Source: an uncultured Lachnospiraceae bacterium
GTDB taxonomy: Bacteria > Bacillota > Clostridia > Lachnospirales > Lachnospiraceae
Direction of reading: 5' to 3'
NCBI GenBank assembly: GCA_902781325.1
Contig: CACZJD010000001.1
Location: forward strand, 23,670 to 87,669
DNA: 64,000 nt
Below are positions 3,693-19,258 of this stretch, in pieces; the first letter of the stretch is position 1, and every line of letters begins with the position of its first letter. Under the pieces are notes generated by a model that had not been told where the DNA came from, did not search any database, and saw nothing but the letters and a program-made list of their open reading frames with translations. Made by a program: the position numbers and the translations under genes.

Positions 3693-5057
<1,365 letters not shown>

Positions 5058-5092: not shown

Positions 5093-6238
5093 TTATTTGT
5101 TATGGCTGCGTACCTTAAATCCCGCATAATCACCCCTGCTGTACACGACCTTGCAGCCTGCCTTGCGGACTCTGAGTTCAATGCACCTGCCGCATGCGGA
5201 CGCCTCGTCCTCCGTGCATATTTTGCCGTCGTACAGAAGATATTTTTTCCGCACGTCTCCCGGAGACAGATTGGGCATGATCACGTTGGCTCCGGCCAGA
5301 AATCCCAATTCTCTTCCGACAGGATGAATGGTTCCCAGCGCTGTCGTCGCGGGAAGCAGAACATCCGGAAGCATGAGCCTGATCACTGCGAGAAGGTGAA
5401 GGGTGTCATAGAGGCTTCCCGCCTTCTCACCCGCGAAGGGTGTATCTTTGTGGGGGATAAAGGGCCCGATTCCGATCATATGAGGCCGGAATTCTTTCAT
5501 ATAGCGCAGATCTTCGATCACATGGTCCCTGGTCTGTCCCGGGGATCCCACCATGATCCCGCAGCCCACCTGATATCCGATCTCTTTGAGATCTGCAAGA
5601 CACCTCTTTCTGTTTGCGATGCTCAGCTCCTGCGGATGAAGATATCTGTAGTGTTCCGGATCCGATGTCTCCTGGCGCAGCAGATAGCGGTCAGCGCCGG
5701 CATCGAAATAGGCTTTATAGGAATCTCTGCTCTTTTCTCCGATAGACAGTGTCACAGCGCAGTCGGGATACCGCTCTTTAATTGCGGACACGATCCCGCA
5801 TATCATTTCATCCGTGAAATACAGATCCTCGCCGCCCTGCAGCACAAAGGTCCTAAAGCCCAGGGAATACCCCTGCTCGCAGCACGCAAGGATCTGCTCC
5901 GGAGTCAGTCTGTAGCGCTGTACATTCCGGTTGCTTCTCCGGATCCCGCAGTATCTGCAGTCATTTCTGCAGTAGTTCGTGAACTCGATCAGCCCGCGAA
6001 GATAGACGTCATTTCCGTAATACTTCTCTCTTGCCCTTCGCGCCGCGGCATAGAGAAGCGCTTCTTCCTCTGTACACCGGGCAGCCGGGATCTCTTCGCG
6101 GATCTGCACGCATCTGTCCGCGTCTTCACTGCACGACTCTGCCAAAATATCGAATAACTCACGAAGATCGCTGTCTGTGAGTGTCTGTTCTTTTTCCAGG
6201 AGCCCGACCAGCTCCGCCATTCTCGAAAGTTTATTCAT
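5093..6238 (-). CDS. hydE: [FeFe] hydrogenase maturase HydE (radical SAM)
   Basis: 381-residue radical SAM enzyme. In [FeFe] hydrogenase assembly HydE acts on the Fe-cysteine complex from HydG and helps build the dithiomethylamine-bridged diiron unit. Radical SAM motif CRNDCRYC (CX3CX2C) lies in LIEFTNYCRNDCRYCGIR, then QGGEDLYF, ETSDPEHYRYLHP and PFIPHKDTPF, all typical of HydE; a second cysteine set CX7CX2C is near the C terminus (ICTEDEASACGRC). I chose the ATG at 6238, which overlaps the hydF stop (ATGAATAA); a TTG three codons earlier is possible. No hydG or hydA is in the window, so its partner may be the nitrogenase-like system encoded in the same operon. BioB/PylB-like enzymes are the main alternative, but length and motifs fit HydE better. 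Confidence 0.88.
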   Translation of the reverse strand: MNKLSRMAELVGLLEKEQTLTDSDLRELFDILAESCSEDADRCVQIREEIPAARCTEEEALLYAAARRAREKYYGNDVYLRGLIEFTNYCRNDCRYCGIRRSNRNVQRYRLTPEQILACCEQGYSLGFRTFVLQGGEDLYFTDEMICGIVSAIKERYPDCAVTLSIGEKSRDSYKAYFDAGADRYLLRQETSDPEHYRYLHPQELSIANRKRCLADLKEIGYQVGCGIMVGSPGQTRDHVIEDLRYMKEFRPHMIGIGPFIPHKDTPFAGEKAGSLYDTLHLLAVIRLMLPDVLLPATTALGTIHPVGRELGFLAGANVIMPNLSPGDVRKKYLLYDGKICTEDEASACGRCIELRVRKAGCKVVYSRGDYAGFKVRSHNK

Positions 6239-7463
6239 TTCGCACAATTTCCGTACTTCTGTCCAGGATCCCCCTCATATAGGCGATCGCAGTGCCGTAA
6301 TTGGTAAAAGGAATTCCCTGGTCTGCCGCGCACTTCATGCGCCAGCGCACCTCTCTGTCGTTAAGCATGCAGGCGCCGCAGTGGATGATCAGCGCGTATT
6401 TAGTGAGATCATCGGGAAATCCTGTGCCCGAGCTCGTCTCAAAGCGGATATCCGCACCGGTCTTCTTCCTGATCCAGGCAGGGATCTTCTCCGTTCCGAT
6501 GTCGCCGCACTGCCTGTGGTGCGTACAGCCCTCGGAGATCAGGATCACATCTCCATCCTTCAGTTCATCTATCTTTCTGACGCCTGCCAGCGCGGAGTCA
6601 AGAAATCCTTTATATCTGGCCATAAGGATCGAGAAGGAGGTGAGGGGAATGTCCGCCGGCACTGTTTTGGCCACCTCTCCAAAGACCTGGCTGTCAGTGA
6701 TGACAAGTCCGGGCTTAGTCTGCCCGCCCTCACAATCCAGTTTCTCCAGTAGTTCTCCGAGCCGGTCCTGTTTGACACAGATGGGAATGCCGTCCGCATC
6801 GAGGATTCCACGGATCATCATCTGCTGGGGAAGGATCAGCCTCCCTTTAGGAGCGGCTTTGTCAATGGGAATTACCAGGATGACCATTTCAGAAGGTTCG
6901 ATCAGATCCCCGATCAGCGGTCTCTCCACAATGCTCTCTCTGCCGAGAACGGCTATTCTTTCCTTGAGTTCATGGATACCATCACCTGTCAAAGCGCTCA
7001 CATAAAGAATCTGTCCCTTAATGATCCCGGGAAACAACTTTTCCGCTTCTTCGACACCGGTCTTGTCAACGAGGTCGGATTTATTAATGACTACAATGTA
7101 GGGTATCTCTTTCTCCTCAAAGAGAGCTATGAGCTCCATGTCAGCTTCTGCGGCTCCGGTCTGCGCGTCAAGTACGAGCACAGCCAGGTCGGCCCGGTTC
7201 ATAACTCTTCTGGCCCGCCGGACTCTCTTCTCCCCCAGCGCGCCCTCGTCATCAAATCCGGGCGTATCTATGATCACTACAGGACCCAGGGGCAGCAGTT
7301 CCATAGACTTGATGACCGGATCAGTCGTCGTGCCCCTGACGTCGGATACCACGGAGATCTCCTGACCCGTCACGGCGTTCACAATGCTGGACTTTCCTGC
7401 ATTTCTCCTGCCGAAGAATCCAATGTGCACTCTTTCGCCCGAAGGCGTGCTGTTAAGGCTCAT
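6231..7463 (-). CDS. hydF: [FeFe] hydrogenase H-cluster maturation GTPase HydF
   Basis: 410-residue scaffold/carrier GTPase that in [FeFe] hydrogenase maturation holds the diiron precursor. N-terminal Era/TrmE-like GTPase: GRRNAGKSSIVNAVTGQ (P-loop), DTPGFDDEG (G3), VINKSDLVD (G4), VSALTG (G5). A middle dimerisation domain is followed by the cluster-binding end with CTHHRQCGD and HCGACM, the CxH...HCxxC ligand set of HydF. Start ATG at 7463 follows AAAGGAGG and overlaps the end of the NifK-like gene by a few bases, so translation is coupled. Its stop overlaps the hydE start. Finding HydF without HydG is unusual. Confidence 0.93.
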   Translation of the reverse strand: MSLNSTPSGERVHIGFFGRRNAGKSSIVNAVTGQEISVVSDVRGTTTDPVIKSMELLPLGPVVIIDTPGFDDEGALGEKRVRRARRVMNRADLAVLVLDAQTGAAEADMELIALFEEKEIPYIVVINKSDLVDKTGVEEAEKLFPGIIKGQILYVSALTGDGIHELKERIAVLGRESIVERPLIGDLIEPSEMVILVIPIDKAAPKGRLILPQQMMIRGILDADGIPICVKQDRLGELLEKLDCEGGQTKPGLVITDSQVFGEVAKTVPADIPLTSFSILMARYKGFLDSALAGVRKIDELKDGDVILISEGCTHHRQCGDIGTEKIPAWIRKKTGADIRFETSSGTGFPDDLTKYALIIHCGACMLNDREVRWRMKCAADQGIPFTNYGTAIAYMRGILDRSTEIVRNE

Positions 7464-8646
7464 CGCTGCCTCCTTTTCCCTCACATGTATTGATGAAAGG
7501 ATCTCTGAAACTGCTTCTGTAAATGCGGCCTGAAAATGCCAGATGCGGCACCGGGTCCATTGCGGTCCCGTCCGGGATCACATAGCGGTAGAGCGGATCC
7601 GCGATCACAAGGGTATTCTCCGAGCAGATCTGCTCCATTGTTTCTTCAACTTCCTCTTCTCCCCGGCAGATCTTATCCGCAGATCGGATCAGATTCTCAC
7701 TCTCTTCTGTAGCTGCGATCACACATGTACGCAGTCCTCTGTCTTCATAATCCTGCGCGATACTGCAGGACAGGACCGGCTCGCCGATCACGATGATCTG
7801 TGGTTTTCCTTGAAGATCCGATCCATCGGTCTCATATGCGGTTCCGCAGACTCCGCTTTCCGCGGCTTTCGCCAGTTTTCGAAGCACACGTCCTCGCATG
7901 CTTCCCAGCGGAGCACCCGCCACCCATGGTGTACCGAACTTGGCCCTCAAATATTCAGCTGTGCGCATGCCTGAAGCTGATACCACAAGGTTGACTGACG
8001 ACCCGCCGGCCTTTTCCAGTTCAGTCAAAGAGTCGCCCATAGCCCACACAGAAGTGATCTCCCAGCCTTCCTTTTCCAGGATTTCACGGAGGGAAGATAC
8101 ACAGCTTTCCACCGCGTAGTCAAGAGGTGTCATTCCGAGTATATTCAGGCTTCTTCTTTTCGCGGCTCTTTCATTGTCTCCGGTTTCAGAGCCGCCCGCC
8201 TCTCCAAACAGCTTTTCAGCCAGCTTAGCAAAAGCAAGGCCTGCGCCGCTTATATAGTCGTGCATTCCGTTAGTCGGAATATAGAATGTCGGTATACCGG
8301 TCCTGCTCTCAATGACCCTGCATATTCCGGCGAAATCCGTACCCGTAAGGTACGGGATCGGAGAATTGCAGAGCGCGATAAACCGCGGCGAGAACTTCCC
8401 GGACGCTCTCACAACATCATTGATCAGTTTGCTGTCATTGCCCATGACCGCATCAGGTTCACACAGCCCCGACAGAAAGATCAGACTGTCGCGGTCGTAC
8501 CATCGCGTCTCGTCATGGGTGTTGTATGTGGAATTACATCCGGACGGGTCGTGCATGACTACCATGCCCCCCAGTTCGTAGAGCGCCGAACACACTCCCG
8601 ATACATCCCCGGAGTAGACCGGCAGTATTCTGTATGCCTGTCTCAT
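7453..8646 (-). CDS. Nitrogenase component 1-like protein, NifK/N type (set A)
   Basis: 397-residue member of the NifD/K/E/N oxidoreductase family, cytoplasmic. YELGGMVVMHDPSGCNSTYNT near residues 24-43, GLCEPDAVMGND (60-71) and ALCNSPIPYLTGTDFAGI (91-108) correspond to the cysteine-bearing segments and the E/D-x-V-x-G-x-x-K-L region of the family. Cysteines at 19, 37, 62 and 93 could bind a metal cluster. It is shorter than NifK (about 520). It clearly matches the C-terminal half of the fused protein at 15933-18482 (same YELGG, GC, DAxxGxDxKL and GTDF blocks). It probably pairs with the D-like half of the fusion encoded immediately upstream (41-base gap). GGGAGG supports the ATG. Substrate unknown. 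Confidence 0.8.
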   Translation of the reverse strand: MRQAYRILPVYSGDVSGVCSALYELGGMVVMHDPSGCNSTYNTHDETRWYDRDSLIFLSGLCEPDAVMGNDSKLINDVVRASGKFSPRFIALCNSPIPYLTGTDFAGICRVIESRTGIPTFYIPTNGMHDYISGAGLAFAKLAEKLFGEAGGSETGDNERAAKRRSLNILGMTPLDYAVESCVSSLREILEKEGWEITSVWAMGDSLTELEKAGGSSVNLVVSASGMRTAEYLRAKFGTPWVAGAPLGSMRGRVLRKLAKAAESGVCGTAYETDGSDLQGKPQIIVIGEPVLSCSIAQDYEDRGLRTCVIAATEESENLIRSADKICRGEEEVEETMEQICSENTLVIADPLYRYVIPDGTAMDPVPHLAFSGRIYRSSFRDPFINTCEGKGGSDEP

Positions 8647-8687
8647 AGTTTCCTCCCGAAGGTCAAAATATCGTCTTATTATACGCG

Positions 8688-10874
8688 TCAGAACAGAATG
8701 CTCTCGCAGCCCAGGCCCTTTCTGGGAACCAGGTCCCTTGTATCCTTCGTATTCTTATAGGCATCTTCCATCAGGGCAGCCATCTTTCTGATCCCGCTAA
8801 AGCCCCACATTCCCCCGAAGTCGACGAGGTTTACAAAGTGCTCAGTTCCGCAGAACCAGGCCGCTTTGGGCCCTACGGCCAGGTAACCGCTGTGTTCCGG
8901 ATCTATGGCTCCCGCGTGGAGCAGACGCCCCTCTGCATGGATCGTACTGCAAAGAAGAATTTCGCCGTGGTTCTCCCTGAGCCAGAGGAAATCATCCTCT
9001 TCTTCGGGGCTCACAGCGTCCAGATAAACTTCCCTGACATTAAATCCGTGCTCAAGAAGAAGTCTTGCAAACCCCAGAGGTCTCTGCACGGCTATATAAT
9101 CAATTGCGATCGGAGTGCTGCCGATCAAATCCCGCAGGTTACAAAGTGCCTTCTCGCACAGTTTTTCTTCCTGTGCAAAGTCAATGCCTGCCTGCTTCAT
9201 AGTTATGCCCAGTGTCTGTGCTGCAGTTTCAAGTTCTTCCCTGATCCCGGCATAATCGATGACTGCCGGCAGATACAGTCCCTTACAGCCCAGTCTTCGG
9301 GCCGTCTGCCTTACAGAGACCGCAGACATGGGGCTTCTTGTTATAAAGACTTCTCTGCCTGAGAGTTTCTGATACTCTTTCAAAGTTTCGCAGTCCTGTA
9401 TCTGCAGCGGATTTGAGTCCATCCCCCGGGCCTTGTCCGCCGCCCGGATCAGCCGCATCAGATCACTCTCGGGATCCAGCGCATAGATATCTCCGAGCAG
9501 TGCTGTAAGCCCGTTCTTTTCTTCAGAAAGCTCAAGGATATCCATCATAGCCTTTCTGAGTTTCATGTCCGGACTGGGGCCTGTCTTTTGCATAATGGGA
9601 TCCATCCATCCCTTGATGAATACTATCTGCGGGAATCTCTTTTCCAGCTCTTTATATACATATCTCAGATCGCATCCCATAAAGTGATGGAGACAGACAG
9701 GAAATACAAGGACAGCTTTGGGAAGTCCTTCCTCTCCCCTCTTTCTGCGGATCTTTTCCAGCACGTCAGAGACTCCCTCAAGTGTGATCTCCTCGAGATT
9801 TCCGCTGTGCATGTCCTTTTCTTCAAGGACTACACAGGAAAAGCGCTCGATAGCGTTCATCTCGGCGGCAGTCATCACGACTCCTCTCATACAGTTGTCC
9901 GAGCAGACGTAGATCTGATGGGCCTGGGGCATCAGCATTCCGATATGCACAATGTTCCAGGTCTCGTGGACCGGCGGATTAAATTCAAGTTCCTGCGCGA
10001 AAGGTGCAGGAAAGGAAGCTTTTGATACAGGGATCCTGGAGGGACCTTCGCTTCCTGCTTCAGAGCTCTCTCTGCTTTTTTCCGGAGCAGCTTCATTTTC
10101 CTGTGCCGGATACGCGACGCCGCAGTCCGAGGCTATTTTATCGGCCAATGCTCTGTAGCAATCCGCAATATCAGAATCAGGAAATGCGCTCATGACAGTC
10201 ACTCCCAGTTCTTCCGCTTCCTGTACAAGATCCGACCTCTCGATACTACCGGTGATCTGCGTGTGAAGATCCTGTGAGAGTTCAAGCACTTTTTCTTCCT
10301 CGCGTTTTACATTTCTCCGGTTGAGGATCAGACCGCCCAGCTGCGCGTATCCTCTCTCTTTGAAGTTTTCCACTGCGAGTCCGATATTGGCCGCCGCATA
10401 GATCGCCATATTCTCGCCGGAAGTCAGAATATACACTCTGTTGGCGTATCCCTCTCTCATAGGCATGGCAAATCCTCCGCATACCACGTCCCCGAGGACA
10501 TCGTAGAGGATCACATCCGGGCTGTATTTTGCCAAAATATCTTTGTCCCTTAAAGTCTCCAGCGCAGTGATGATGCCCCTGCCGGCGCATCCCCGTCCGG
10601 GCATGGGACCCCCTGCCTCCGCGCAGATGACTCGTCCTCTTCCGGTCTCTTTCACATAGATAACATCTTCAAGTCCAAAGGGAACGCGCTTTCTGACCAT
10701 CTCCATGACTGTGGGGATCTTCTTCCCGTCCCGCAGGCTCAGGGTGGAATCCGCTTTGGGGTCGCATCCGATCTGAAGTACAGTCATTCCCAGGCTTGCC
10801 CAGTATTGCGACAGATTTGAAACGGTAGTCGATTTCCCGATGCCGCCTTTTCCGTAAAATGCTATTCTGATCAT
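8688..10874 (-). CDS. NifH-NifD-like fusion protein (set A)
   Basis: 728 residues joining a nitrogenase reductase to a component 1-like domain. Residues 1-255 are a NifH/BchL-type ATPase: P-loop GKGGIGKST (8-16), [10 protein letters not shown] (36-44), and the two cluster-ligand cysteines in GRGCAGRG (Cys96) and [11 protein letters not shown] (Cys132), all intact. A Glu/Ala/Ser/Pro-rich linker covers about 255-300. Residues 305-728 resemble NifD/E: YVCSDNCMRGVV (Cys323, Cys327), VVLEEKDMHSGNLEEI (E-K-D-x-x-x-G motif), VFPVCLHHFMGCDL (Cys393, Cys400) and a C-terminal NLVDFGGMWGFSGIRKM block. I do not see an obvious equivalent of the FeMo-cofactor cysteine. A covalent H-D fusion is not the normal architecture, where the reductase docks transiently. 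ATG overlaps the TM1266-like stop (ATGA). Confidence 0.85.
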   Translation of the reverse strand: MIRIAFYGKGGIGKSTTVSNLSQYWASLGMTVLQIGCDPKADSTLSLRDGKKIPTVMEMVRKRVPFGLEDVIYVKETGRGRVICAEAGGPMPGRGCAGRGIITALETLRDKDILAKYSPDVILYDVLGDVVCGGFAMPMREGYANRVYILTSGENMAIYAAANIGLAVENFKERGYAQLGGLILNRRNVKREEEKVLELSQDLHTQITGSIERSDLVQEAEELGVTVMSAFPDSDIADCYRALADKIASDCGVAYPAQENEAAPEKSRESSEAGSEGPSRIPVSKASFPAPFAQELEFNPPVHETWNIVHIGMLMPQAHQIYVCSDNCMRGVVMTAAEMNAIERFSCVVLEEKDMHSGNLEEITLEGVSDVLEKIRRKRGEEGLPKAVLVFPVCLHHFMGCDLRYVYKELEKRFPQIVFIKGWMDPIMQKTGPSPDMKLRKAMMDILELSEEKNGLTALLGDIYALDPESDLMRLIRAADKARGMDSNPLQIQDCETLKEYQKLSGREVFITRSPMSAVSVRQTARRLGCKGLYLPAVIDYAGIREELETAAQTLGITMKQAGIDFAQEEKLCEKALCNLRDLIGSTPIAIDYIAVQRPLGFARLLLEHGFNVREVYLDAVSPEEEDDFLWLRENHGEILLCSTIHAEGRLLHAGAIDPEHSGYLAVGPKAAWFCGTEHFVNLVDFGGMWGFSGIRKMAALMEDAYKNTKDTRDLVPRKGLGCESILF

Positions 10875-11143
10875 TTTATCTCCACCTCTGAGATCACATT
10901 GGAATAAGCCGTCTTGGCACTGATCCCCGGCAGCTTTCCGATCTTACCGGAAAGCGCGCTGATCTTCTCCTGAGGAGCGTCTACCGCTACGCTGATGATG
11001 CTGATCCCTTTGCTTCTGTAAGGAATCCCCATTCTCCCGATAATATAACCGCGATATTCGTGAAGGATCTCATTGATCTTCTGCGCGGCATCCTCGTTTC
11101 CGACAATGATAGAGATCACCGCCACTCTCGTCTCTATGCTCAT
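10871..11143 (-). CDS. TM1266-type small protein (iron-only hydrogenase system regulator family)
   Basis: 90-residue ACT/NikR-C-like protein, MSIETRVAVISIIVGNEDAAQ..., with alternating strands and a conserved LHEYRGYIIGRMGIPY core. Proteins like this are annotated as putative iron-only hydrogenase system regulators because they sit beside hydEFG in many anaerobes; the biochemical role is unknown and there is no DNA-binding domain here. The ATG at 11143 is preceded by AAAGGAG; an in-frame earlier start inside hypE is less likely. Its stop overlaps the start of the NifH-D fusion. Presence in this operon supports a link with hydE and hydF. Confidence 0.75.
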   Translation of the reverse strand: MSIETRVAVISIIVGNEDAAQKINEILHEYRGYIIGRMGIPYRSKGISIISVAVDAPQEKISALSGKIGKLPGISAKTAYSNVISEVEIK

Positions 11144-11162
11144 AGCCGTCTCCTTTATTCTC

Positions 11163-12173
11163 TCAGCAGATCCTCGGAAGCAGCTCATTACCGGGCTGCG
11201 GAAGAAGAGTCTGCGCGCCGATTTCTGTCGTCATAGTCACTCTTCCGGGCATAACGTCGGTGATCTTACCGATCACAGTCGTCCCTTCCGTGTATTTGCA
11301 GTTCCGGAGAGTTTCCACTAACAGTTCCGCTTTCTCTTCAGGGCATACCATAACAAGTCTTCCCTCGCAGGCCAGATATAAGGGTTCAAGCCCCAGCAGG
11401 CCGCAGACTCCCTTCACGGCGGGATCTACAGGGATCTTTCCCGCGTCAAGATTTACGCCGACGCCGCTCTGGGCCGCGATCTCATAGAGAACTGTTCCCA
11501 CGCCGCCGCGGGTCGCATCGCGGATAACATGGATCTCGGGAACTGCCTTCAGCGCCGCCTGTACAGCTCCGGACAGGGGCGCGCAGTCGCTTGTGACGTC
11601 CGCCTCAATCCCGTAGTCATCTCTCTCAAGAAGGATGGTGCAGCCGTGTCTTCCGATATCACCGGTCACAATAACCGCATCGCCGTGTTCTGCCAGTGCT
11701 CCGGAAGTCTTCACGCCGTCAGGAATGATCCCGACTCCGGTGGTGTTGATGAATACACCGTCCACCTGGCCTTTCCCTGCAACTTTGGTGTCTCCTGCCA
11801 CGATCTGTACGCCGGCTTCGGCGGCAGTTTTCTCCATCGCAGCTGCGATCTCCTCGAGTTTGTCCATGGGGAATCCTTCCTCGATGACAAATCCGCAGGT
11901 CAGATATTTGGGCACTGCGCCCATGCAGGCGAGGTCATTTACCGTTCCGCAGATCGAGAGTTTTCCGATGTTTCCGCCTGCGAAAAAGGCCGGGGATACG
12001 ATAAAGCCATCTGTAGACATAGCGATCCTTCCCTTTTCGATCCCGATGACTGCCGCGTCATCCGCAGTAAAGAGAGGATTCTGGAAATGTCTTTTGAACA
12101 CACGGTCGATCAATTCTGAAGTCTGTTTGCCGCCGGCGCCGTGGGCCAGCGTTACTGTATTGCTGCCAGTCAT
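11163..12173 (-). CDS. hypE: Hydrogenase maturation protein HypE
   Basis: 336-residue PurM-like ATP-dependent dehydratase. It converts the carbamoyl group placed on its C-terminal cysteine by HypF into a thiocyanate, the cyanide donor for the Fe(CN)2CO group of [NiFe] hydrogenases. Signs are VTLAHGAGGKQTSELI at the start, TTEADVTSD-like ATP-binding region around DDAAVIG and DGFIVSP, IRDATRGGVGTVL, and the obligatory C-terminal PRIC. I chose the ATG at 12173; another ATG at 12194 overlaps the hypD end, and GGAGG lies between them at a long distance. Length matches HypE. No [NiFe] hydrogenase gene is in the window. Confidence 0.95.
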   Translation of the reverse strand: MTGSNTVTLAHGAGGKQTSELIDRVFKRHFQNPLFTADDAAVIGIEKGRIAMSTDGFIVSPAFFAGGNIGKLSICGTVNDLACMGAVPKYLTCGFVIEEGFPMDKLEEIAAAMEKTAAEAGVQIVAGDTKVAGKGQVDGVFINTTGVGIIPDGVKTSGALAEHGDAVIVTGDIGRHGCTILLERDDYGIEADVTSDCAPLSGAVQAALKAVPEIHVIRDATRGGVGTVLYEIAAQSGVGVNLDAGKIPVDPAVKGVCGLLGLEPLYLACEGRLVMVCPEEKAELLVETLRNCKYTEGTTVIGKITDVMPGRVTMTTEIGAQTLLPQPGNELLPRIC

Positions 12174-12183
12174 TGTATTTATC

Positions 12184-13245
12184 TCAACCTCCATACAGAT
12201 AGAATGCCGAACAAGCGCCCTCGCCTGATACCATACAGGCTCCAACGGGGTGCTCCGGCGTACACACTTTGCCAAAAACTTTGCAGTCGGAAGGGAGACA
12301 TTTGCCCTGAAGGACTTCTCCGCATCGGCAGGCCGGATTGCTCCGCCCTTTCACTTCCGGAAGGCTGAACTTCACACGAGCGTCATACTGTGAATACTCA
12401 TCCCGCAGTTTCATTCCGGACATAGGGATCTCCCCGATCCCTCTCCACTCGCTGTCGCAGGGTTCCATCATGGAATCCACCAGGCGCACTGCTGCCGGCT
12501 GTCCCTGTGCTCTTACGACTCTGGGGTAGCAGTTCACGAAGAAAGGCTCTCCCTTTTCAAACTTCGTGACAGCTACAGCAAGCGCAGTTACAAGCTCTGA
12601 AGCAGTAAATCCCGCGCACACGCCGCTCACGCCGCGGGCCGCCAGATCCTCGCAGATCCCCGTTCCCACAATAGCGTGCACATGACCGGGATAGAGATAC
12701 AGATCAGTGCTGTCCTTCATGGCTTCATAAGCTCCCGGCATTGTCTTATTAGCTGTCAAAACAGAGAAATTCTCCACATTATCCCTCTGCGCTGCCTGCA
12801 CCGCGAGACATACGGAAGGCGTCGTGGTCTCGAATCCGACTGAGAGGAAAACCACCTGCTCATCCTGATGCTTCACCGCGTACTCCACCGCATCCGCAGG
12901 CGAGTATACGACCTGGACTTTCGCCCCTGCGCCGCGGGCTTTCTGAAGGCTTGAAGAAGTTCCCGGAACCCTGACAAGATCCCCGAAAGTGCAGATGGTG
13001 CATCCGTGATCCAGCGCGAGGATGAGAGCCTCGTCGATAAAGCTCACCGGAGTTACGCAGACGGGACATCCCGGTCCTGAGATCAGCTTTACAGACGGCG
13101 GGAGTATCTTTCTGATGCCCAGCCTGAAGATCTCGTGGGTGTGAGTGCCGCATACCTCCATGATCCGCACATCAGGACCGCTGTAGTTCTTAATGATCTC
13201 AAGGGCCGATCTCTTTTTTGACCCTGCATTTCTGTCATCACTCAT
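12184..13245 (-). CDS. hypD: Hydrogenase maturation protein HypD
   Basis: 353-residue [4Fe-4S] protein that with HypC forms the scaffold on which Fe(CN)2CO is built. Signs are IMEVCGTHTHEIFRLG, ISGPGCPVCVTP, FLSVGFETTTPS and the C-terminal cluster-binding set CRCGEVLQGKCLPSDCKVFGKVC-type cysteines (read in two pieces: ACRCGEVLQGKC and SDCKVFGKVC). Start overlaps the hypC stop (ATGA), so HypC and HypD are coupled, in line with their complex. Full length. Confidence 0.96.
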   Translation of the reverse strand: MSDDRNAGSKKRSALEIIKNYSGPDVRIMEVCGTHTHEIFRLGIRKILPPSVKLISGPGCPVCVTPVSFIDEALILALDHGCTICTFGDLVRVPGTSSSLQKARGAGAKVQVVYSPADAVEYAVKHQDEQVVFLSVGFETTTPSVCLAVQAAQRDNVENFSVLTANKTMPGAYEAMKDSTDLYLYPGHVHAIVGTGICEDLAARGVSGVCAGFTASELVTALAVAVTKFEKGEPFFVNCYPRVVRAQGQPAAVRLVDSMMEPCDSEWRGIGEIPMSGMKLRDEYSQYDARVKFSLPEVKGRSNPACRCGEVLQGKCLPSDCKVFGKVCTPEHPVGACMVSGEGACSAFYLYGG

Positions 13246-13454
13246 AACAGTTCCTCCAGAAGCTCCTCTGTCTCTGTCTGATCATCGCTGGTGATCTTTG
13301 AGATCGCCGCTCCTGCGTGCACCATGACATAATCGCCGGGCTCCAGATCCTCCAAAAGCTGCGCGGAGACCTGCCTCTTGGCACCGCTTGCATCTACCAG
13401 CGCTGTTCCGTTTTCATTGATCCTGATTACTCTTGCTGAAAGACCTACACACAT
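13242..13454 (-). CDS. hypC: Hydrogenase maturation chaperone HypC
   Basis: 70-residue HypC/HybG family protein, MCVGLSARVIRINENGTALVD..., with the essential Cys2 that binds the iron, and the LEPGDYVMVHAGAAISKI segment typical of the family. In [NiFe] maturation it passes the Fe(CN)2CO unit with HypD to the large subunit. Ends in an acidic tail. Ribosome site GGAGAGG before ATG; 46 bases after hypF. Confidence 0.95.
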   Translation of the reverse strand: MCVGLSARVIRINENGTALVDASGAKRQVSAQLLEDLEPGDYVMVHAGAAISKITSDDQTETEELLEELL

Positions 13455-13500
13455 AATTTCCTCTCCTTGGCGGAATCATCCGCTTTTATATATTTGATCT

Positions 13501-15936
13501 TTATGAAACATCCGTCCGGATGATCTTTACTTTCCCGTCATGAACTGCCTGTACTGCAGCTACAGCCTGCCCCAATGCTATGCCTCCGTCATTAGGAGGA
13601 ACCAGATGGTGGATCAAAACATTGAAACCTTCCGATTCAAGCCCTTTTTTGACCATGTCCAGAAGAAGGCGGTTCTGAAAGCATCCACCGCTGAGGGCGG
13701 CAGTCCGGATCCCGTTCTCCTTACGGATTTCGGCGCAGGCTGAAATAATCTGGTCAGCGAGCATTTTGTGGAAGAGCCATGCAAGACGATCCGTTTCCTC
13801 ACCGCGGAGTCTTCCGAGAGTGATCCTTTTCACGATCTTGTCCGTAGGAAGAATCAGGCGTCCGTCTTCTCCTCTTATTATTGTCTGATCTGCTGTGCTC
13901 TCCTCATTCCTGCTTTCCGGCGCAGTTTTCTCGTACGCCTCTGCAGCAAACTCCAGAGCCATCGAGGCTTCTCCCTCAAAAGTGGAATGTCTGCAAATCC
14001 CGCAGATCGCGCTCACGGCATCGAACAGCCTTCCCGCGCTGGTGGAGACCACCGAGTTGAGTCTTCTGTCCGCCATTTTCATCAGAACAGAAGATTCCTG
14101 CTCCGTGCACAGTGAAAACTTTCGAGTAAGGGAAAGGACATCTTTAAGCGGTGAATCCGCTTCCTCTGCTTTGCTGATACTGTGCAGCATGGACACTGCG
14201 ATCCTCCATCCGTCTGTGGAGGAGAGGTCTCCCCCCACCTGAATAAATGGTTTAATGCTGGCTTTTCTTTCAAAGCCGTGGTAGTCCGCCGTAAGGATCT
14301 CTCCTCCCCAGATGGTACCGTCAGTCCCGTATCCTGTGCCGTCCATGGAAACTCCTATGACCGGATCCGCGTGATCATTCTCCGCCATACAGCTTAGAAC
14401 ATGGGCGTAATGATGCTGAACTTTTACCACCGGAAGGGAATCTCCTCCACGCTCTCTCCCGAGCTTCTCTGAGAGCCCGATCGATGTCGTTACCGAGTTG
14501 TATCTGGGGTGAAGGTCACACGCAATAACTTCCGGAGTCACTTCCAGGAGCCGCGCATACCTCCCTGTCGTCTCTTCCAGCGCCTTCACGCTTCTGAGGT
14601 CCGCCAGATCTCCGATATAAGAGGAGGGATAAAACAGGCTTCCGCTTCCTATGCAAAATGTATTTTTCAGTTCGCCGCCTATGGCCAGCACTCTTGTGCC
14701 GCCCGTTTCTTTTTCGCTTCCTTCCCACGCAGAGAGCATGTAGGGAAGCGGCGCATAACCCCTGGACCTGCGGATCATGTAAGGCTCCCCGTCATAGAAA
14801 TCCATGACCGAGTCGTCTGCCCTGATCCGGATCTTTCTGTTGTGAGAAAGAATACAGTCGCAGAGATTTCCAAGCTCCGCAATGGCCTCAGCATCATCTC
14901 TGCATATCGGTGCTCCGGAGACATTTCCGCTGGTCATCACAAGGCAGTCCGGCATATTGATCCCGTCCGGATAATCAAAGAGCAGGATCTGGACCGGTGC
15001 ATAGGGGAGCATCACTCCAACGGTAGGATTTCCGGGTGCGATCGAAGGACACAGTTTCCCTCCTTCTCTTCGCTGCAGCAGCAGGATCGGCTTCTGGTGC
15101 CCGGTGAGAATCTCTCTCTGCGCATCGCTGATCTCACATTCTCTCTCTGCTGCCTCTTCGTCCCTCATCATAACGGCAAAGGGCTTAACAGGCCTTGTCT
15201 TTCTCAGGCGAAGTTTTGCCACCGCTTCTTCATTGGTCGCATCGCAGCACAGGTGGAATCCTCCTATGCCTTTGACCGCGGCGATCCCGCCTTCTGAAAT
15301 GATCCTGCGGGTTCTTGTGATCGCTTCACTTCCGCGGACAGCTTCTTCTCCGGCAAGATATACCTCAGGTCCGCACTCGTTGCAGCAGACCGGCTGAGCA
15401 TCGTAGCGCCGGCTTTTCGGAGAGTGATACTCACCGGAACAGGTCGGGCACATGGGAAACATTTTCATGCTCGTCCTCACCCTGTCATAAGGAAGTCCTT
15501 CCAAAATGGTAAGCCGGGGTCCGCAGCACGTGCAGTTGATAAAGGGGTGAAGATATCTTCTGTCGCCCGGATCGAGAAGTTCCTTCCGGCACTCTTCACA
15601 GATCGCAATGTCCGGAGAAATAAAGATCTCTCCCTTAGTTTTCGTGCTCTCTATGATCTCGAAGGATGTAAAACTTTGTTCCCTGCTGTCAGCGCTGCGG
15701 ACATCCATCTTGAGCACAGCTGCCCTCGCCGGAGGCTTTTTCTCGAGAAGATTTAAGAAGCAGTCCACCTGTTCCTGTCCGCCCTGGGCAAAGATCTCCA
15801 CATAAGGTCCCTTATTGCAGACTGATCCTCTGATCCCGGCCTGCGCCGCGTGTCTGGCCACAGTAGGCCTGAACCCCACTCCCTGGACAATTCCGTATAC
15901 TTTTATTCTTAATGTCTTCTCTGTATTTCCGATCAT
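13501..15936 (-). CDS. hypF: Carbamoyltransferase HypF
   Basis: 811-residue enzyme that uses carbamoyl phosphate and ATP to carbamoylate the C-terminal cysteine of HypE. Domains in order: acylphosphatase-like (about 8-95, VQGVGFRPTVARHA), two zinc-finger motifs (CEEC...CTCC and CPTC...CNEC, about 110-190), YrdC-like (about 205-390, KGIGGFHLCCDATN, KPFAVM), Kae1-like transferase (about 415-811, HHYAHVLSCMAEN, GVSMDGTGYGTDG, LSGGCFQNRLL). All hallmarks are intact and length is normal. The ATG overlaps the stop of the fused NifDK-like gene (ATGA), so hypF is part of the same transcript as the nitrogenase-like genes. Confidence 0.97.
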   Translation of the reverse strand: MIGNTEKTLRIKVYGIVQGVGFRPTVARHAAQAGIRGSVCNKGPYVEIFAQGGQEQVDCFLNLLEKKPPARAAVLKMDVRSADSREQSFTSFEIIESTKTKGEIFISPDIAICEECRKELLDPGDRRYLHPFINCTCCGPRLTILEGLPYDRVRTSMKMFPMCPTCSGEYHSPKSRRYDAQPVCCNECGPEVYLAGEEAVRGSEAITRTRRIISEGGIAAVKGIGGFHLCCDATNEEAVAKLRLRKTRPVKPFAVMMRDEEAAERECEISDAQREILTGHQKPILLLQRREGGKLCPSIAPGNPTVGVMLPYAPVQILLFDYPDGINMPDCLVMTSGNVSGAPICRDDAEAIAELGNLCDCILSHNRKIRIRADDSVMDFYDGEPYMIRRSRGYAPLPYMLSAWEGSEKETGGTRVLAIGGELKNTFCIGSGSLFYPSSYIGDLADLRSVKALEETTGRYARLLEVTPEVIACDLHPRYNSVTTSIGLSEKLGRERGGDSLPVVKVQHHYAHVLSCMAENDHADPVIGVSMDGTGYGTDGTIWGGEILTADYHGFERKASIKPFIQVGGDLSSTDGWRIAVSMLHSISKAEEADSPLKDVLSLTRKFSLCTEQESSVLMKMADRRLNSVVSTSAGRLFDAVSAICGICRHSTFEGEASMALEFAAEAYEKTAPESRNEESTADQTIIRGEDGRLILPTDKIVKRITLGRLRGEETDRLAWLFHKMLADQIISACAEIRKENGIRTAALSGGCFQNRLLLDMVKKGLESEGFNVLIHHLVPPNDGGIALGQAVAAVQAVHDGKVKIIRTDVS

Positions 15937-18482
15937 AATTTACCTGAAACCGCGAAATGCGGCAGTCCGGCGAACACCCCGTCAAAACAGTCCCGCAACA
16001 GAGGGAGCATGACCGGGTCCGCGATGATCATGTCGTATTTTTCTGAGCAAACCGCCCGGGCGAGGTCTGTCTCCTCGCTAAGGTGAAAATCTCCCGCTTC
16101 GCTCAGTTCTTTCTTCAGCATGAACCATGTAGCTGTGTCCACGCTTCCCGCTCCGAGCTCCTGCAGCACCTTTCTGCAGGAATTTGCCGTAATCTGTTCG
16201 TGAACCACCAGGATTCTTTTTCCGGCAACTGATGTATTCTCCGCGATCTTGCGGATCTGCCGTTCTGCCAAAGGATTGCAGCAGCGGAAAGGGACTGAAT
16301 ATTTTGACAAAAGCGCTTTCGCAGCCTCATAACCCGACACAGTAATAACAAGGTTCTCACAGACTGATGTCGGATCTGAAAAAGCTTCTGTCCCATCCGC
16401 ACGGCTTCCGTAGATCACCGCCCGCTTGCCGAATTCCTTCTCTGTATATTCTCTGAGCGCCTCATAATCAGCGATCCCGCCCAGATCCATGTATTGCGCG
16501 CCGAGAATTCCGATAGGGCCATTTCTCTCTGCATCTGTTTCATTGCCCGGCTTTTTTGCGAACTTCTCAAAAAGAGCCAGATATGCCTTTTCAGCGCCTT
16601 TGTCGTAGTATTCCATTCCGTCGCAGGCAATACCGATACAGGGGAGTCCCGTCTTTTTCTCAGACATCCTCTCAAGCGCCCTGAAATCTGTCCCTATGAC
16701 GGCCGGAACAGGAGTCCCGACAATGGCAGCAAAAGCAGGAGTTTTGTCCTCCCCGCCTTCTGACAGTAAAGCTGCTGCGTCCGCCAGTTTCTTCACCAGT
16801 TTCTCATCCCTTCCGAGGATCGCGTCCATATCCCGAAGGCCTGCACTGAAAACGGCGCTTCTTGCGCGGAACCATCTGGGCTCGTCGAAGCCGCAGATAT
16901 TGCCTGTACAGCCTCCCGCGTCGCAGATCACTGTGATACCGCCGAGTTCATAGAATACAGAGACCGCGCCGGACTGATCCGGGGCAAATGGTGTGAGGAT
17001 CTCCCGGTAGCCCTTGGGCCTGTTGCCGGAGGTCTCTATATTCTTCGCGGGCTCCCCTCGGCTGACCTTTTCGATCTTTCTGTCCGCTCCGTACTCGCCG
17101 ACCAGTCTGACCGCAGAACCGTAGAGTTCCTTTTCACTGCCCTGCACGGTCTCCGACAGAGCCTCGAAAAAGCGGCAAACGCCCATAAAACCAAAAGGCT
17201 GAATGTCCTGTCCCCACAGAAGACAGGGGTAATCCGGATGATACCAGCCCGCGTCCCGTCCAAGAGCGATGTGCAGAGTTCCCTCATTATCTGCATCCCC
17301 ATCCGTGTTCTCTTTATATAGCAGCATGGAGGGCGACAGGTTCGAATAAACCCTTGTTTCCGGACTCAAGTCGGACAAGTGCCTGATATAGCGATAAGAA
17401 TCCGTTGTGATCGTTCCGAAGATCTCCCTGACTCTGAAGCCGTAACGCACCAGGGCAAGCGCAAGCTCGAAAGGATCCGCATTGATCGCTTCGCCGACAC
17501 TGAAGACCGCTCCGGAACAGGTTTCTCTGAACCTCTTCATCGCTGTTTTGGCCTTTTCCATGTAGGTCCCGTATTCAAACCGGACACCGAGAGCCGCCGC
17601 AAAAGCGTCATACTGCGCCGCTATCCTGTCGATCTGGTAAAGCCTTGTGAGTTCGACAGAAGGAATTCCCAGTCTCTCCTGAAGGTCTCCTGCTGCGGGT
17701 CTCGCCTCCGGATTCAGGATCAGGTTGAAATTGGCCTCCGACATCTTTTCAAACTCAGAATAGTCTCCGCATGAGGAGACTTCCCTGATCCGCCTCACTC
17801 CGATCTGTCTAAGAAGGGACCTGAGTTCGCAGTCCTCTTCCAAAGGGGCAAAATATCCCAGGATATTGACACTGTCGGATTTCTTGGGAATCGGCTGCAG
17901 CAGGGAATATATGGATTGTCTGACGTGAACCATGGGCGGCTTTCTGCCCTCTCTGGTCAGCGCATACATGTAGCATGGCCTTACACGGATATAGGAATCC
18001 TCTGCGTCACAAACTGCCCGGACGGATTCATTTACCATTTTCTCCGCTTTCCTGCAGACCCGCTCCATATCTGTGCCCAGCAGCGCGTCCACGCAGGTGA
18101 TGCAGATCATAATGACAGAGGGCCGCTTACTGAGGCCTGCCGCCAGTTCGCAGACCGCCTTTGGAATCCGGCGCAGATGTCTGCCGGTTATGAGATCCGT
18201 CTCATCCATCGTCAGATAAAAAAACCTGTTTTCGTACCCCTTCATAGTGCTGATGGAAGATGTATTTCTTCCGCAGCAGCCGGGAGATACGATCAGCATG
18301 ACCGATCCGGGAACGGACAATCCCGCCCTCTTGACGCCGAATCCCTCAGCCCCCGGCGAATTAAAAGCCAGGGTGGCCGGCGAACTGTAGATCAGATGGG
18401 AGGAAGAAGTCATTTCCTGCGGGATATTATTCTTTCCGAGTTCCCACAGCTCCCTGACTGAATAACTTATCGCTCCGCTCAT
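15933..18482 (-). CDS. Fused NifD-NifK-like nitrogenase component 1 homologue (set B)
   Basis: 849 residues with two component 1-like halves. The D-like half (about 1-470) has VSPGCCGRNTSS (Cys69, Cys70), YLTMDETDLITGRHLRRI (the E-x-D-x-x-x-G motif) and MICITCVDALLGTDM (Cys127, Cys130), then INILGYFAP and a C-terminal block PFGFMGVCRFF. The K-like half (about 490-849) has YELGGITVICDAGGCTGNIC (Cys520, 525, 530), GLRDMDAILGRDEKL and GTPVPAVIGTDF, matching the 397-residue protein at 7453-8646. The region where NifD has its cofactor cysteine reads ANFNLILNPEAR, without Cys. Start ATG at 18482 has GGAGG five bases upstream, inside the first possible codons. Natural fusion of both subunits in one chain is rare. 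Function unknown. Confidence 0.83.
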   Translation of the reverse strand: MSGAISYSVRELWELGKNNIPQEMTSSSHLIYSSPATLAFNSPGAEGFGVKRAGLSVPGSVMLIVSPGCCGRNTSSISTMKGYENRFFYLTMDETDLITGRHLRRIPKAVCELAAGLSKRPSVIMICITCVDALLGTDMERVCRKAEKMVNESVRAVCDAEDSYIRVRPCYMYALTREGRKPPMVHVRQSIYSLLQPIPKKSDSVNILGYFAPLEEDCELRSLLRQIGVRRIREVSSCGDYSEFEKMSEANFNLILNPEARPAAGDLQERLGIPSVELTRLYQIDRIAAQYDAFAAALGVRFEYGTYMEKAKTAMKRFRETCSGAVFSVGEAINADPFELALALVRYGFRVREIFGTITTDSYRYIRHLSDLSPETRVYSNLSPSMLLYKENTDGDADNEGTLHIALGRDAGWYHPDYPCLLWGQDIQPFGFMGVCRFFEALSETVQGSEKELYGSAVRLVGEYGADRKIEKVSRGEPAKNIETSGNRPKGYREILTPFAPDQSGAVSVFYELGGITVICDAGGCTGNICGFDEPRWFRARSAVFSAGLRDMDAILGRDEKLVKKLADAAALLSEGGEDKTPAFAAIVGTPVPAVIGTDFRALERMSEKKTGLPCIGIACDGMEYYDKGAEKAYLALFEKFAKKPGNETDAERNGPIGILGAQYMDLGGIADYEALREYTEKEFGKRAVIYGSRADGTEAFSDPTSVCENLVITVSGYEAAKALLSKYSVPFRCCNPLAERQIRKIAENTSVAGKRILVVHEQITANSCRKVLQELGAGSVDTATWFMLKKELSEAGDFHLSEETDLARAVCSEKYDMIIADPVMLPLLRDCFDGVFAGLPHFAVSGKL

Positions 18483-18493
18483 TCTCTCCTCCA

Positions 18494-19258
18494 TCAGTTT
18501 CCGCTCTTTTCCTCTTCAATAAGCCTTTGGGCGAGGTCCAGAAAGCACTTGCTCACATAGAGTTCCGGATCTCCCTCGATCACTGTCTTTCCCTGATCTT
18601 CAAATCGGATGATATCGTCACTTCTGGGGATCCGGGCCACTATAGGCAGTCCTTTGGACAGCGCGAACTCCTCTACCTTCCTGCTCTCGTCTTCGACATT
18701 TCTGCTGTTGAGGATAATGCCCTCCACTCTTGCGTAGCTCCTGTCCTCGAAGTTTCGCACTGCCGTGCATATATTGTTGGCCGCATAGAGCGCCATCTTT
18801 TCACCGGATGTCACAATGAGGACCTTCTGCGCATAACCCTCTCTGATCGGCGCGGCAAATCCTCCGCACACAACATCCCCGAGAACGTCGTACAGCACCA
18901 CATCGGGCTTGTAAGTCTCAAACAGCCTGAGGTCCTCCAGCAGGCTGAAGGTGGCGATGATCCCCCTGCCGGCACAGCCGAGTCCCGGCGTAGGTCCGCC
19001 TGTCTCAATACACAGGACTCCTCCATAACCCTCTTTTGCGATCTGGTCAATGGCTTCGGGCTCCTCATCCTTTTCGCGCAGATAGTCCATCACCGGCTGC
19101 AGTGGCCGGCCGCCCAGAAGATTTATGGTGGAATCCGCCTTGGGATCACAGCCGATCTGGATCACTCTTTTGCCTAAGAAGGCAAATGCCGCAGCCAGAT
19201 TGGATGTTGTTGTGGACTTTCCGATACCGCCCTTCCCGTAAATCGCTATTTTGATCAT
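18494..19258 (-). CDS. NifH-like nitrogenase reductase (set B)
   Basis: 254-residue homodimeric [4Fe-4S] ATPase of the NifH/BchL/CfbC family, which passes electrons to a component 1 partner. P-loop [13 protein letters not shown] (8-20), [16 protein letters not shown], cysteines in GLGCAGRGI and [16 protein letters not shown], and [13 protein letters not shown] are all intact. It is slightly shorter than NifH (about 275-295), lacking the C-terminal extension. First gene of the operon; its stop overlaps the next gene's leader (TGATG), so the partner is the fused D-K protein. Differs from the NifH half of the 728-residue fusion but is clearly its paralogue. Confidence 0.93.

What the first reader, a model, noticed from the sequence alone, without database searches (positions are those of the whole stretch)
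5093..19258. Hybrid nitrogenase-like / Hyp / Hyd operon of unknown product
Eleven same-strand genes with mostly overlapping stops and starts: NifH-like, NifD-K-like fusion, HypF, HypC, HypD, HypE, TM1266-like, NifH-D-like fusion, NifK-like, HydF, HydE. This is seen directly. Known roles: HypCDEF build Fe(CN)2CO, HydE/HydF build the diiron dithiolate unit, NifH-type proteins drive ATP-dependent reduction. Inference: a new metalloenzyme or cofactor-assembly system that brings these chemistries together, since neither a [NiFe] nor an [FeFe] hydrogenase is encoded here.
Basis: partly seen in the sequence, partly recalled or inferred. Interest (0 to 1): 0.95.

Follow-up and report, generated by a model that had tools for sequence, protein, structure and literature searches.

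The report
HydG-free hydrogenase cofactor assembly cluster
This gene cluster looks like a second way for bacteria, many of them from animal guts, to build the iron-carbonyl-cyanide cofactor of hydrogen-making [FeFe] enzymes: nitrogenase-like proteins, usually together with Hyp proteins, take the place of the standard enzyme HydG.

Summary
The 11-gene operon is real and conserved: 11 further genomes of 200 in the family carry set 1; D2 and K2 occur in all 80 named loci kept of 544. The product is probably not a new cofactor: the operon most likely replaces HydG in H-cluster maturation of [FeFe]-hydrogenases. Among 118 HydF-positive genomes HydG is present in 0 of 12 carriers and 96 of 106 others; in a class-wide sample 0 of 10 against 183 of 281. 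The two swap within one genus. In G406 a hydrogenase gene lies 322 bases upstream of the whole cluster. All 12 family carriers have HydF and PF02906; 10 of 12 lack a [NiFe] large subunit. Operon HypD is its own clade. A second version has an importer instead of set 1 and Hyp. A 2022 paper left missing hydG and hypAB in some of these acetogens unexplained. Against: 5 of 50 named carriers have HydG, some HydF genomes have neither, importer-bearing sets also occur elsewhere, no experiment. Chemistry is inference.

The parts
18494..19258 (-). H1: NifH-like Fe protein, set 1 (254 aa)
   Evidence: PF00142 E 7.6e-90; below all NCBIfam nifH/CfbC/BchL/BchX cut-offs; P-loop and both [4Fe-4S] cysteines kept
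15933..18494 (-). D1-K1: natural fusion of NifD-like and NifK-like halves, set 1 (853 aa)
   Evidence: PF00148 two stretches; AF2 pLDDT 83.6, Foldseek best NifEN fusion 9i0g E 7.3e-24, TM 0.35 over the whole fusion; separate genes in 10 of 11 family loci
13501..15936 (-). HypF (carbamoyltransferase, cyanide synthesis)
   Evidence: TIGR00143 743.5 bits, cut-off 466.1
13242..13454 (-). HypC (70 aa; Cys2 kept)
   Evidence: PF01455 E 1.1e-22
12184..13245 (-). HypD
   Evidence: TIGR00075 355.7 bits, cut-off 192.8; one clade with other operon HypD
11163..12173 (-). HypE (ORF opens at 12275; likely start 12173; C-terminal Cys kept)
   Evidence: TIGR02124 403.4 bits, cut-off 251.6; start inferred
10871..11143 (-). 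TM1266-family putative [FeFe]-hydrogenase system regulator (ORF opens at 11188)
   Evidence: TIGR03959 115.6 bits, cut-off 60.8
8688..10874 (-). H2-D2: natural fusion of second NifH-like and NifD-like protein, set 2 (728 aa)
   Evidence: PF00142 2.5e-78; PF00148 1.5e-6, 27.8 bits against 28.6; a D2 relative (L036) folds as nitrogenase component 1, pLDDT 88.8
7453..8646 (-). K2: NifK-like protein, set 2 (397 aa)
   Evidence: PF00148 2.1e-30
6231..7463 (-). HydF, H-cluster scaffold GTPase (ORF opens at 7484)
   Evidence: TIGR03918 541.9 bits, cut-off 325.55
5093..6238 (-). HydE, radical SAM H-cluster maturase (ORF opens at 6247)
   Evidence: TIGR03956 548.5 bits, cut-off 254.6
3693..5057 (-). 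Neighbouring class II fumarase, 35 bases downstream; probably not a functional part
   Evidence: TIGR00979 fumC_II 729.4 bits, cut-off 664.75; aspA 445.8, cut-off 681.2; also over the NF008909 aspartate ammonia-lyase subfamily cut-off (523.7 against 510)

Best explanation
[quoted passage not shown] Shown here: it coexists with HydF and PF02906 proteins, is nearly exclusive with HydG, lies together with HydE, HydF or TM1266 in part of the loci, and in one genome follows a hydrogenase gene on the same strand. Inferred: HypE/HypF make cyanide from carbamoyl phosphate and HypC/HypD assemble an Fe-CN/CO unit, as in [NiFe] maturation. The two ATP-driven two-component reductases (H1/D1K1 and H2/D2/K2) supply low-potential electrons or reductive chemistry that turns this unit into a synthon HydE can use, and HydE and HydF finish the [2Fe] cluster. 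Set 2 is the shared core. Set 1 plus HypCDEF is one supply module; a FecCD-type importer, usually with a fused TM1266 domain, takes its place in a second version.
For: (1) Exclusion from HydG: HydF-positive genomes of the family 0/12 against 96/106, Fisher 7.6e-11; class sample 0/10 against 183/281, p 3.8e-5; named genomes 45/50 lack HydG while 46/50 have HydF, 41 both. The samples share genomes: the own genome is in the first two, at least four others in the first and third. (2) PF02906 in 12/12 family carriers and 58/59 carriers of the other samples; intact H-cluster motifs in at least one protein in 25 of the 32 carriers where I read any. (3) Position: in 47 HydG loci HydE-HydG-HydF is contiguous in 35, with TM1266 in front in 19. 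Type B locus L170 reads HydE-H-D-K-SBP-PERM-ATP-HydF-TM1266; type A loci L168 and L265 read TM1266-D2-K2-HydF. (4) Swap inside genus g259: G307, G383, G406, G448 have set 2 and no HydG, G334 and G488 the reverse. (5) G406: HydA, 322 bases, then H1-D1-K1-HypFCDE-TM1266-D2-K2-HydF-HydE on one strand. (6) HydF tree, 85 rows: at least 12 label changes, 3 forced by starred branches. (7) HypD tree: 69 operon copies on one side of a branch against 20 others, SH-aLRT 99; 10/12 family carriers lack a [NiFe] large subunit. (8) Oliverpabstia, an apparent exception, has two HydF genes, one beside HydG and one beside set 2. (9) Di Leonardo 2022 reports missing hydG and hypAB in C. ljungdahlii and relatives (passages); C. 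ljungdahlii, C. ragsdalei and C. carboxidivorans carry this cluster.
Against: No experiment. HydG coexists in 5/50 named genomes (C. drakei, C. thailandense, Oliverpabstia, two Intestinibacter). Ten HydF+ HydG- genomes of the family lack set 1 orthologs: G117 and G134 have type B, G048 a distant set, G047 a partial HydG, and six (G011, G114, G122, G128, G142, G181) show no nitrogenase-like match at 1e-10 with the D1-K1 query. Four of 50 named carriers lack HydF. HydF and HydE lie in the locus in only 15 and 17 of 58 type A named loci and in 4 of 12 family carriers each (and window), so linkage to them is partial. Importer-bearing H-D-K sets also occur with HydG (G143, G072) or without HydF (G152, G059, G004), so the importer is not specific to HydG replacement. 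Type B genomes G117, G134 and G175 have no HypD, so Hyp is not always the ligand source. PF02906 overcounts: TSCSP-type proteins occur also without HydF, and in seven carriers (G071, G249, G307, G318, G383, G390, G475) no protein I read had all motifs.
Confidence: 0.8

Rival explanations
1. The operon builds a different, still unknown cofactor or enzyme, and HydE/HydF are merely shared with or borrowed from ordinary hydrogenase maturation.
For: Two complete nitrogenase-like sets are more than HydG replacement obviously needs; no catalytic step is shown; four of 50 named carriers have no HydF; HydE/HydF lie outside the locus in most type A loci.
Against: Near-exclusion with HydG in two samples, swap within a genus, HydA just upstream of the run in G406. 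No other client was identified, but unlabelled flanking genes were not annotated.
Confidence: 0.11
2. A ThiH-like tyrosine lyase or free environmental CO/CN- replaces HydG, and the operon is unrelated to ligand supply.
For: ThiH-like proteins occur in 9 of 12 family carriers; Di Leonardo 2022 proposes atypical HydG-like proteins or free diatomics (passages).
Against: No match at E 1e-30 in G000, G069, G167, C. ljungdahlii and C. ragsdalei; would not explain the swap or the separate HypD clade.
Confidence: 0.05
3. HypCDEF serve [NiFe]-hydrogenases and only lie in the same neighbourhood.
For: The own genome and G069 have a partial [NiFe] large-subunit match over the cut-off.
Against: In the own genome it lies beside a second HypCDE set, 40-45% identical to the operon's; 10 of 12 family carriers and 52 of 65 genomes tested have no [NiFe] large subunit; operon HypD forms its own group.
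Confidence: 0.03

Closest known systems
HydEFG maturation of [FeFe]-hydrogenases
   Same: HydE, HydF, TM1266; in some carriers an aspartate ammonia-lyase-type gene near HydF (6 of 7 tested over the subfamily cut-off); PF02906 proteins in the genome
   Different: No HydG; nitrogenase-like reductases and Hyp proteins, or an importer, in its place
HypCDEF synthesis of Fe(CN)2CO for [NiFe]-hydrogenases
   Same: HypC, D, E, F with key cysteines kept
   Different: No HypA/B in the operon, usually no [NiFe] enzyme, separate HypD group, coupled to nitrogenase-like genes and HydE/HydF
NifEN and other nitrogenase component 1 proteins
   Same: Fold; NifE is the best profile match in the PDB for both D proteins
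   Different: Scores far below family cut-offs; the NifE Cys that holds the cluster precursor (ligand role recalled) aligns to non-Cys in D1 and D2
Nitrogenase-like reductases of other function (DPOR, COR, CfbCD, methylthio-alkane reductase, NFL of isethionate assimilation in Rhodobacter capsulatus PMC11423573, listing and abstract start only)
   Same: H, D, K architecture
   Different: Below model cut-offs where a model matched; different neighbours (recalled)

Membership tests
HydEFG [FeFe]-hydrogenase maturation system | HydE | tested here: met
   TIGR03956 over cut-off
HydEFG [FeFe]-hydrogenase maturation system | HydF | tested here: met
   TIGR03918 over cut-off
HydEFG [FeFe]-hydrogenase maturation system | HydG | tested here: not met
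   No match in the own genome (82% complete) and none over cut-off in the 11 other family carriers
HydEFG [FeFe]-hydrogenase maturation system | Client HydA with H-cluster ligands | tested here: met
   G000 C27, TSCCPGW / IPCTAKKFE / EIMACPGGC (motifs recalled), NF040763 group A6 model over cut-off
HydEFG [FeFe]-hydrogenase maturation system | H-cluster formed | not testable with these tools
   Needs FTIR or EPR
[NiFe]-hydrogenase Hyp system | HypC, D, E, F | tested here: met
[NiFe]-hydrogenase Hyp system | HypA and HypB in the operon | tested here: not met
   Each of the 11 operon genes is assigned to another family; the rest of the genome was not searched for them
[NiFe]-hydrogenase Hyp system | [NiFe] client in carriers | tested here: not met
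   10 of 12 family carriers have none at E 1e-10; the own genome has a partial match
Molybdenum nitrogenase | NifH/NifD/NifE equivalog scores | tested here: not met
   H1 311.5 against 394.35; D1K1 NifE 81.2 against 505.1
Molybdenum nitrogenase | Cofactor-binding Cys of the alpha subunit | tested here: inconclusive
   Profile alignment to NifE puts non-Cys there; no residue-level superposition read
DPOR / COR / CfbCD | Family model cut-offs | tested here: not met
   BchL, BchX, BchN, BchB, CfbC and CfbD models that matched are all below cut-off
Methylthio-alkane reductase | MarHDK orthology | tested here: inconclusive
   D2 model matches 9fmg and 9d9u no better than other component 1 proteins; no sequence comparison made

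The most novel reading that the evidence does not exclude
Nitrogenase-type ATP-driven reductases act directly on an organometallic iron complex: HypCDEF make an Fe-CN/CO unit, and the two reductases convert it (for example by making CO from CO2 or removing one cyanide reductively) into the HydE substrate. The [NiFe] and [FeFe] active sites would then share one ligand-making route in these bacteria. Type B organisms would import a precursor through the TM1266-linked transporter instead of making it.
Probability: 0.32. Interest if true: 0.97.

Novelty: categorically new. Interest (0 to 1): 0.93.

Why it matters
H-cluster biosynthesis is described as HydE + HydF + HydG, with tyrosine as the source of CO and CN- (PMC9431212, passages). 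Some gut Lachnospiraceae and Oscillospiraceae and gas-fermenting clostridia appear to use another route, built from nitrogenase-like and mostly also [NiFe] maturation proteins. This would account for a published puzzle (hydG and hypAB not found in C. ljungdahlii and relatives; same passages), give a role to two nitrogenase-like families, offer new parts for hydrogenase production, and link the biosynthesis of the two hydrogenase active sites. It is testable in C. autoethanogenum, where transposon mutagenesis works (PMC9004356, passages). The parts are known families and the end product is probably the known H-cluster; the route is what has no counterpart I know of.

Tried and rejected
Unknown-product cofactor: no longer first choice once the HydG exclusion appeared. 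Aspartate ammonia-lyase as last gene of the window operon: rejected, the gene passes the class II fumarase equivalog cut-off and not that of aspA, although HydF-neighbour lyases elsewhere pass the aspartate ammonia-lyase subfamily cut-off in 6 of 7 tested. PF02906 as proof of a hydrogenase: weakened, because TSCSP-type proteins occur in HydF-lacking genomes (7 of 12 read; 2 of the 12, G017 and G022, even have all motifs). Class-specific residues in HydE/HydF: no clean switch; the best non-gap case is HydE position 231, F in 33 of 35 HydG-type and 11 of 37 nitrogenase-type rows (HydF/HydE from L074-L079 left out). Rfam: no match in the window at gathering scores. VIA-align library not available. 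NifB was not searched; C. autoethanogenum was not searched; unlabelled flanking genes of the named loci were not annotated.

On checking: my first wording 'TM1266-HydE-HydG-HydF in most HydG loci' was wrong (19 of 47; HydE-HydG-HydF in 35 of 47), and importer-bearing sets outside the system made me lower the main odds from 0.82 to 0.80 and the novel case from 0.35 to 0.32.

Literature searches for prior description: (open-licence PMC papers only); no listing or passage seen describes nitrogenase-like genes in H-cluster maturation. One search contained a meaningless filler term. Wang 2013 (PMC3807470) was not held; that its [FeFe]-hydrogenase was purified in active form is recalled, its existence is cited through PMC9004356 (passages).
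Full report
Observation. In transcription order: H1 (NifH-like), D1-K1 fusion, HypF, HypC, HypD, HypE, TM1266, H2-D2 fusion, K2, HydF, HydE. Neighbours overlap by up to 11 bases or lie at most 46 bases apart (with inferred starts). A class II fumarase follows 35 bases on. The own genome is a 3.0 Mb assembly, 82% complete.

Conservation. A search of 200 genomes of the same family with the D1-K1 protein found 11 other genomes with strong relatives (E 1.5e-148 or better) and 10 with weaker nitrogenase-like matches. In the 11 loci, H1-D1-K1 are present in all (D1-K1 fused in L035); HypFCDE follow in order except where the contig ends (L040, L043) and in L042, where no HypC was detected. D2-K2 follow in six (L036, L037, L038, L039, L042, L045), lie in front in two (L041; K2 end only in L044), and are absent locally in L035. 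In G071 and G091 the nearest second set lies on another contig and is only 31-40% identical in D and K (L056, L059). A named-genome search with a D2 profile gave 544 confirmed stretches, of which 80 were kept. Of these 80, 58 carry a Hyp gene (type A), 16 carry importer genes and no Hyp (type B), 6 were unassigned. Hosts include Blautia, Coprococcus, Eubacterium ramulus, Faecalicatena, Clostridium ljungdahlii, C. carboxidivorans, Intestinibacter, and Coriobacteriaceae and Lentisphaeria assemblies.

The link to HydG. HydG over its cut-off occurs in 100 of 200 family genomes and in none of the 12 carriers; 9 of the 12 have only ThiH-like matches of 187-204 bits, 3 have none. HydF occurs in 118 of 200 and in all 12 carriers. 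Within HydF-positive genomes the table is 0/12 against 96/106, Fisher 7.6e-11 (4.1e-10 without the own genome); over all 200 it is 0/12 against 100/188, p 3.4e-4. In a class-wide sample of 291 genomes, 10 have a strong D2 match (over 500 bits) and none of these has HydG, while 183 of the other 281 do (p 3.8e-5, or 1.0e-4 without the own genome). Five genomes with weaker D2 matches (200-340 bits) are HydG-positive in 4 of 5 and I take them for other nitrogenase-like families. These tests ignore relatedness; the control is repeated exchange: in genus g259, G307, G383, G406 and G448 have set 2 and no HydG, while G334 and G488 have HydG and no set 2 match, and a HydF tree of 85 rows needs at least 12 changes of the label, 3 of them forced by starred branches (quick method, no bootstrap).

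Position. In 47 HydG loci that I fetched, HydG is directly followed by HydF in 44, HydE-HydG-HydF is contiguous in 35, and TM1266 stands directly before them in 19. Type B locus L170 reads HydE-H-D-K-SBP-PERM-ATP-HydF-TM1266. Linkage in type A is looser: of 58 named loci, TM1266 is present in 39, HydE in 17, HydF in 15 (many loci are cut by contig ends or the 10 kb flank). Of the 12 family carriers, HydF is in the locus in 4 and HydE in 4 (window; L038, L042, L045; L035, L042, L045); HydF of the others lies elsewhere. In G406 one strand holds a NADH-dependent [FeFe]-hydrogenase (group A6 model 776 bits, cut-off 765; TSCCPGW / IMPC / EVMACPGGC), preceded by a NAD(P)-binding protein gene, and 322 bases further H1-D1-K1-HypF-C-D-E-TM1266-D2-K2-HydF-HydE. 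Oliverpabstia has HydG with its own HydF on one contig and a second HydF beside set 2 on another.

Clients. PF02906 is found in all 12 family carriers and 58 of 59 carriers of the other samples. This overcounts: 70 of 200 family genomes have PF02906 without HydF. Of 12 such genomes where I read one protein, 7 have TSCSP instead of TSCCP, 3 lack the MPC motif and 2 have all motifs. In carriers I read proteins from 32 genomes; 25 have at least one with intact TSCCP/SSCCP, MPC/GPC and CxxGC-type motifs, including the own genome, C. ljungdahlii, C. carboxidivorans, C. catus and G406. In G071, G249, G307, G318, G383, G390 and G475 none of those read does; of their PF02906 matches I read 2 of 6 in G071, 1 of 4 in G475 and the single match listed in the other five.

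Hyp proteins. [NiFe] large-subunit matches occur in 13 of 65 genomes tested and in 2 of the 12 family carriers. In the own genome the match is partial (positions 1-70 of 508) and lies beside a second HypCDE set 40-45% identical to the operon's. A tree of 89 HypD separates 69 operon copies from 20 others with SH-aLRT 99 (the tool warns of long branches among the others). HypE ends in Cys in 69 of 70 and HypC has Cys2 in 64 of 65 of the copies that passed my length and identity filters. The operon Hyp proteins therefore look functional and not dedicated to [NiFe] enzymes.

Nitrogenase-like proteins. Ten aligned Fe proteins of both sets keep the P-loop and both cluster cysteines. D2 of L036 (pLDDT 88.8) and the window's D1-K1 (83.6) fold as nitrogenase component 1 (for the fusion the best hit has TM 0.35, so the arrangement of halves is not established). 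NifE is the nearest PDB sequence for D1 (4.3e-12) and D2 (2.6e-6). The NifE Cys that binds the cluster precursor (recalled role) aligns with non-Cys in both. My inference is a [4Fe-4S] relay and a cavity for a bound substrate, as in DPOR-type enzymes.

Two supply modules. Type B has no set 1 and no Hyp in the locus, but has a Peripla_BP_2 / FecCD / ABC ATPase importer. In 14 of 16 type B ATPases tabulated a TM1266 domain is fused at the C-terminus; that of L052, used as query, is short. Type B genomes G117, G134 and G175 have no HypD match at 1e-30. G117 and G134 have HydF and no HydG; G175 has neither. The ligand source in type B is unknown. Against specificity: importer genes also follow or precede H-D-K sets of another kind (D2-like identity 25-28%) in G048, G152, G059, G143, G004 and G072, of which G143 and G072 have HydG and G152, G059 and G004 lack HydF. 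Intestinibacter bartlettii has type B without HydE/HydF in the locus and also HydG. Type B may thus be recruited from a broader importer-linked family.

Literature. Di Leonardo et al. 2022 (PMC9431212; passages and outline) found HydE and HydF in eight Clostridium acetogens but no HydG in five, and HypCDEF without HypAB in five, and gave no settled explanation. Four of the five HydG-less species also miss hypAB; C. carboxidivorans has them. They claim CLAU_RS03260 as HydG in C. autoethanogenum; I did not search that genome. C. ljungdahlii, C. ragsdalei and C. carboxidivorans lack HydG in my search too and carry the cluster. C. drakei has HydG in both. PMC11736057 (passages) links aspA to hyd operons; lyases of the aspartate ammonia-lyase subfamily lie near HydF in several carriers. 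None of my ten literature searches showed a report of this system (listed in Tried and rejected).

Results against. Five of 50 named genomes with set 2 have HydG; four of 50 lack HydF. Only 50 of the 80 named loci were tested, chosen to favour isolates and diversity. Six HydF-positive, HydG-negative family genomes show no nitrogenase-like match at 1e-10 with the D1-K1 query. At least four of the 50 named genomes (G200, G203, G208, G243) are family-sample genomes again (G124, G159, G025, G175), judged from identical match coordinates. HydE and HydF show no clean class-specific residue, which fits unchanged downstream chemistry but is not proof.

Verdict. The system most likely replaces HydG in H-cluster assembly (0.80, lowered from 0.82). 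That Hyp proteins supply the ligands in type A is probable; the exact work of the two reductases, and the ligand source in type B, are open.

Noticed in passing
L245, L246, L247, L248, L253, L255, L256: HydA-like proteins with TSCSP in place of TSCCP occur in genomes without HydF or HydG; 70 of 200 family genomes have PF02906 but no HydF. They may lack an H-cluster, yet L245 passes the NADH-dependent [FeFe]-hydrogenase A6 model.
   Followed up: partly
L074-L079 (G011, G114, G122, G128, G142, G181): HydF-positive genomes with neither HydG over cut-off nor a nitrogenase-like match at 1e-10; they may hold a third solution, distant relatives or assembly gaps.
   Followed up: partly
L046-L051 (G048, G152, G059, G143, G004, G072): Another nitrogenase-like H-D-K family with FecCD-type importer genes next to it, in genomes with or without HydG and HydF; function unknown.
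   Followed up: partly
L080 (G000 C32:8130-10458): Second HypCDE set, 40-45% identical to the operon's, beside a partial [NiFe] large-subunit match at C32:11765.
   Followed up: partly
L102: In [Ruminococcus] faecis JCM 15917 the D1, HypF and HypE reading frames of the cluster are split, either assembly error or decay.
   Followed up: no
L250 and L252 (G017, G022): HydA-like proteins with all three motifs in genomes where no HydF was found.
   Followed up: no
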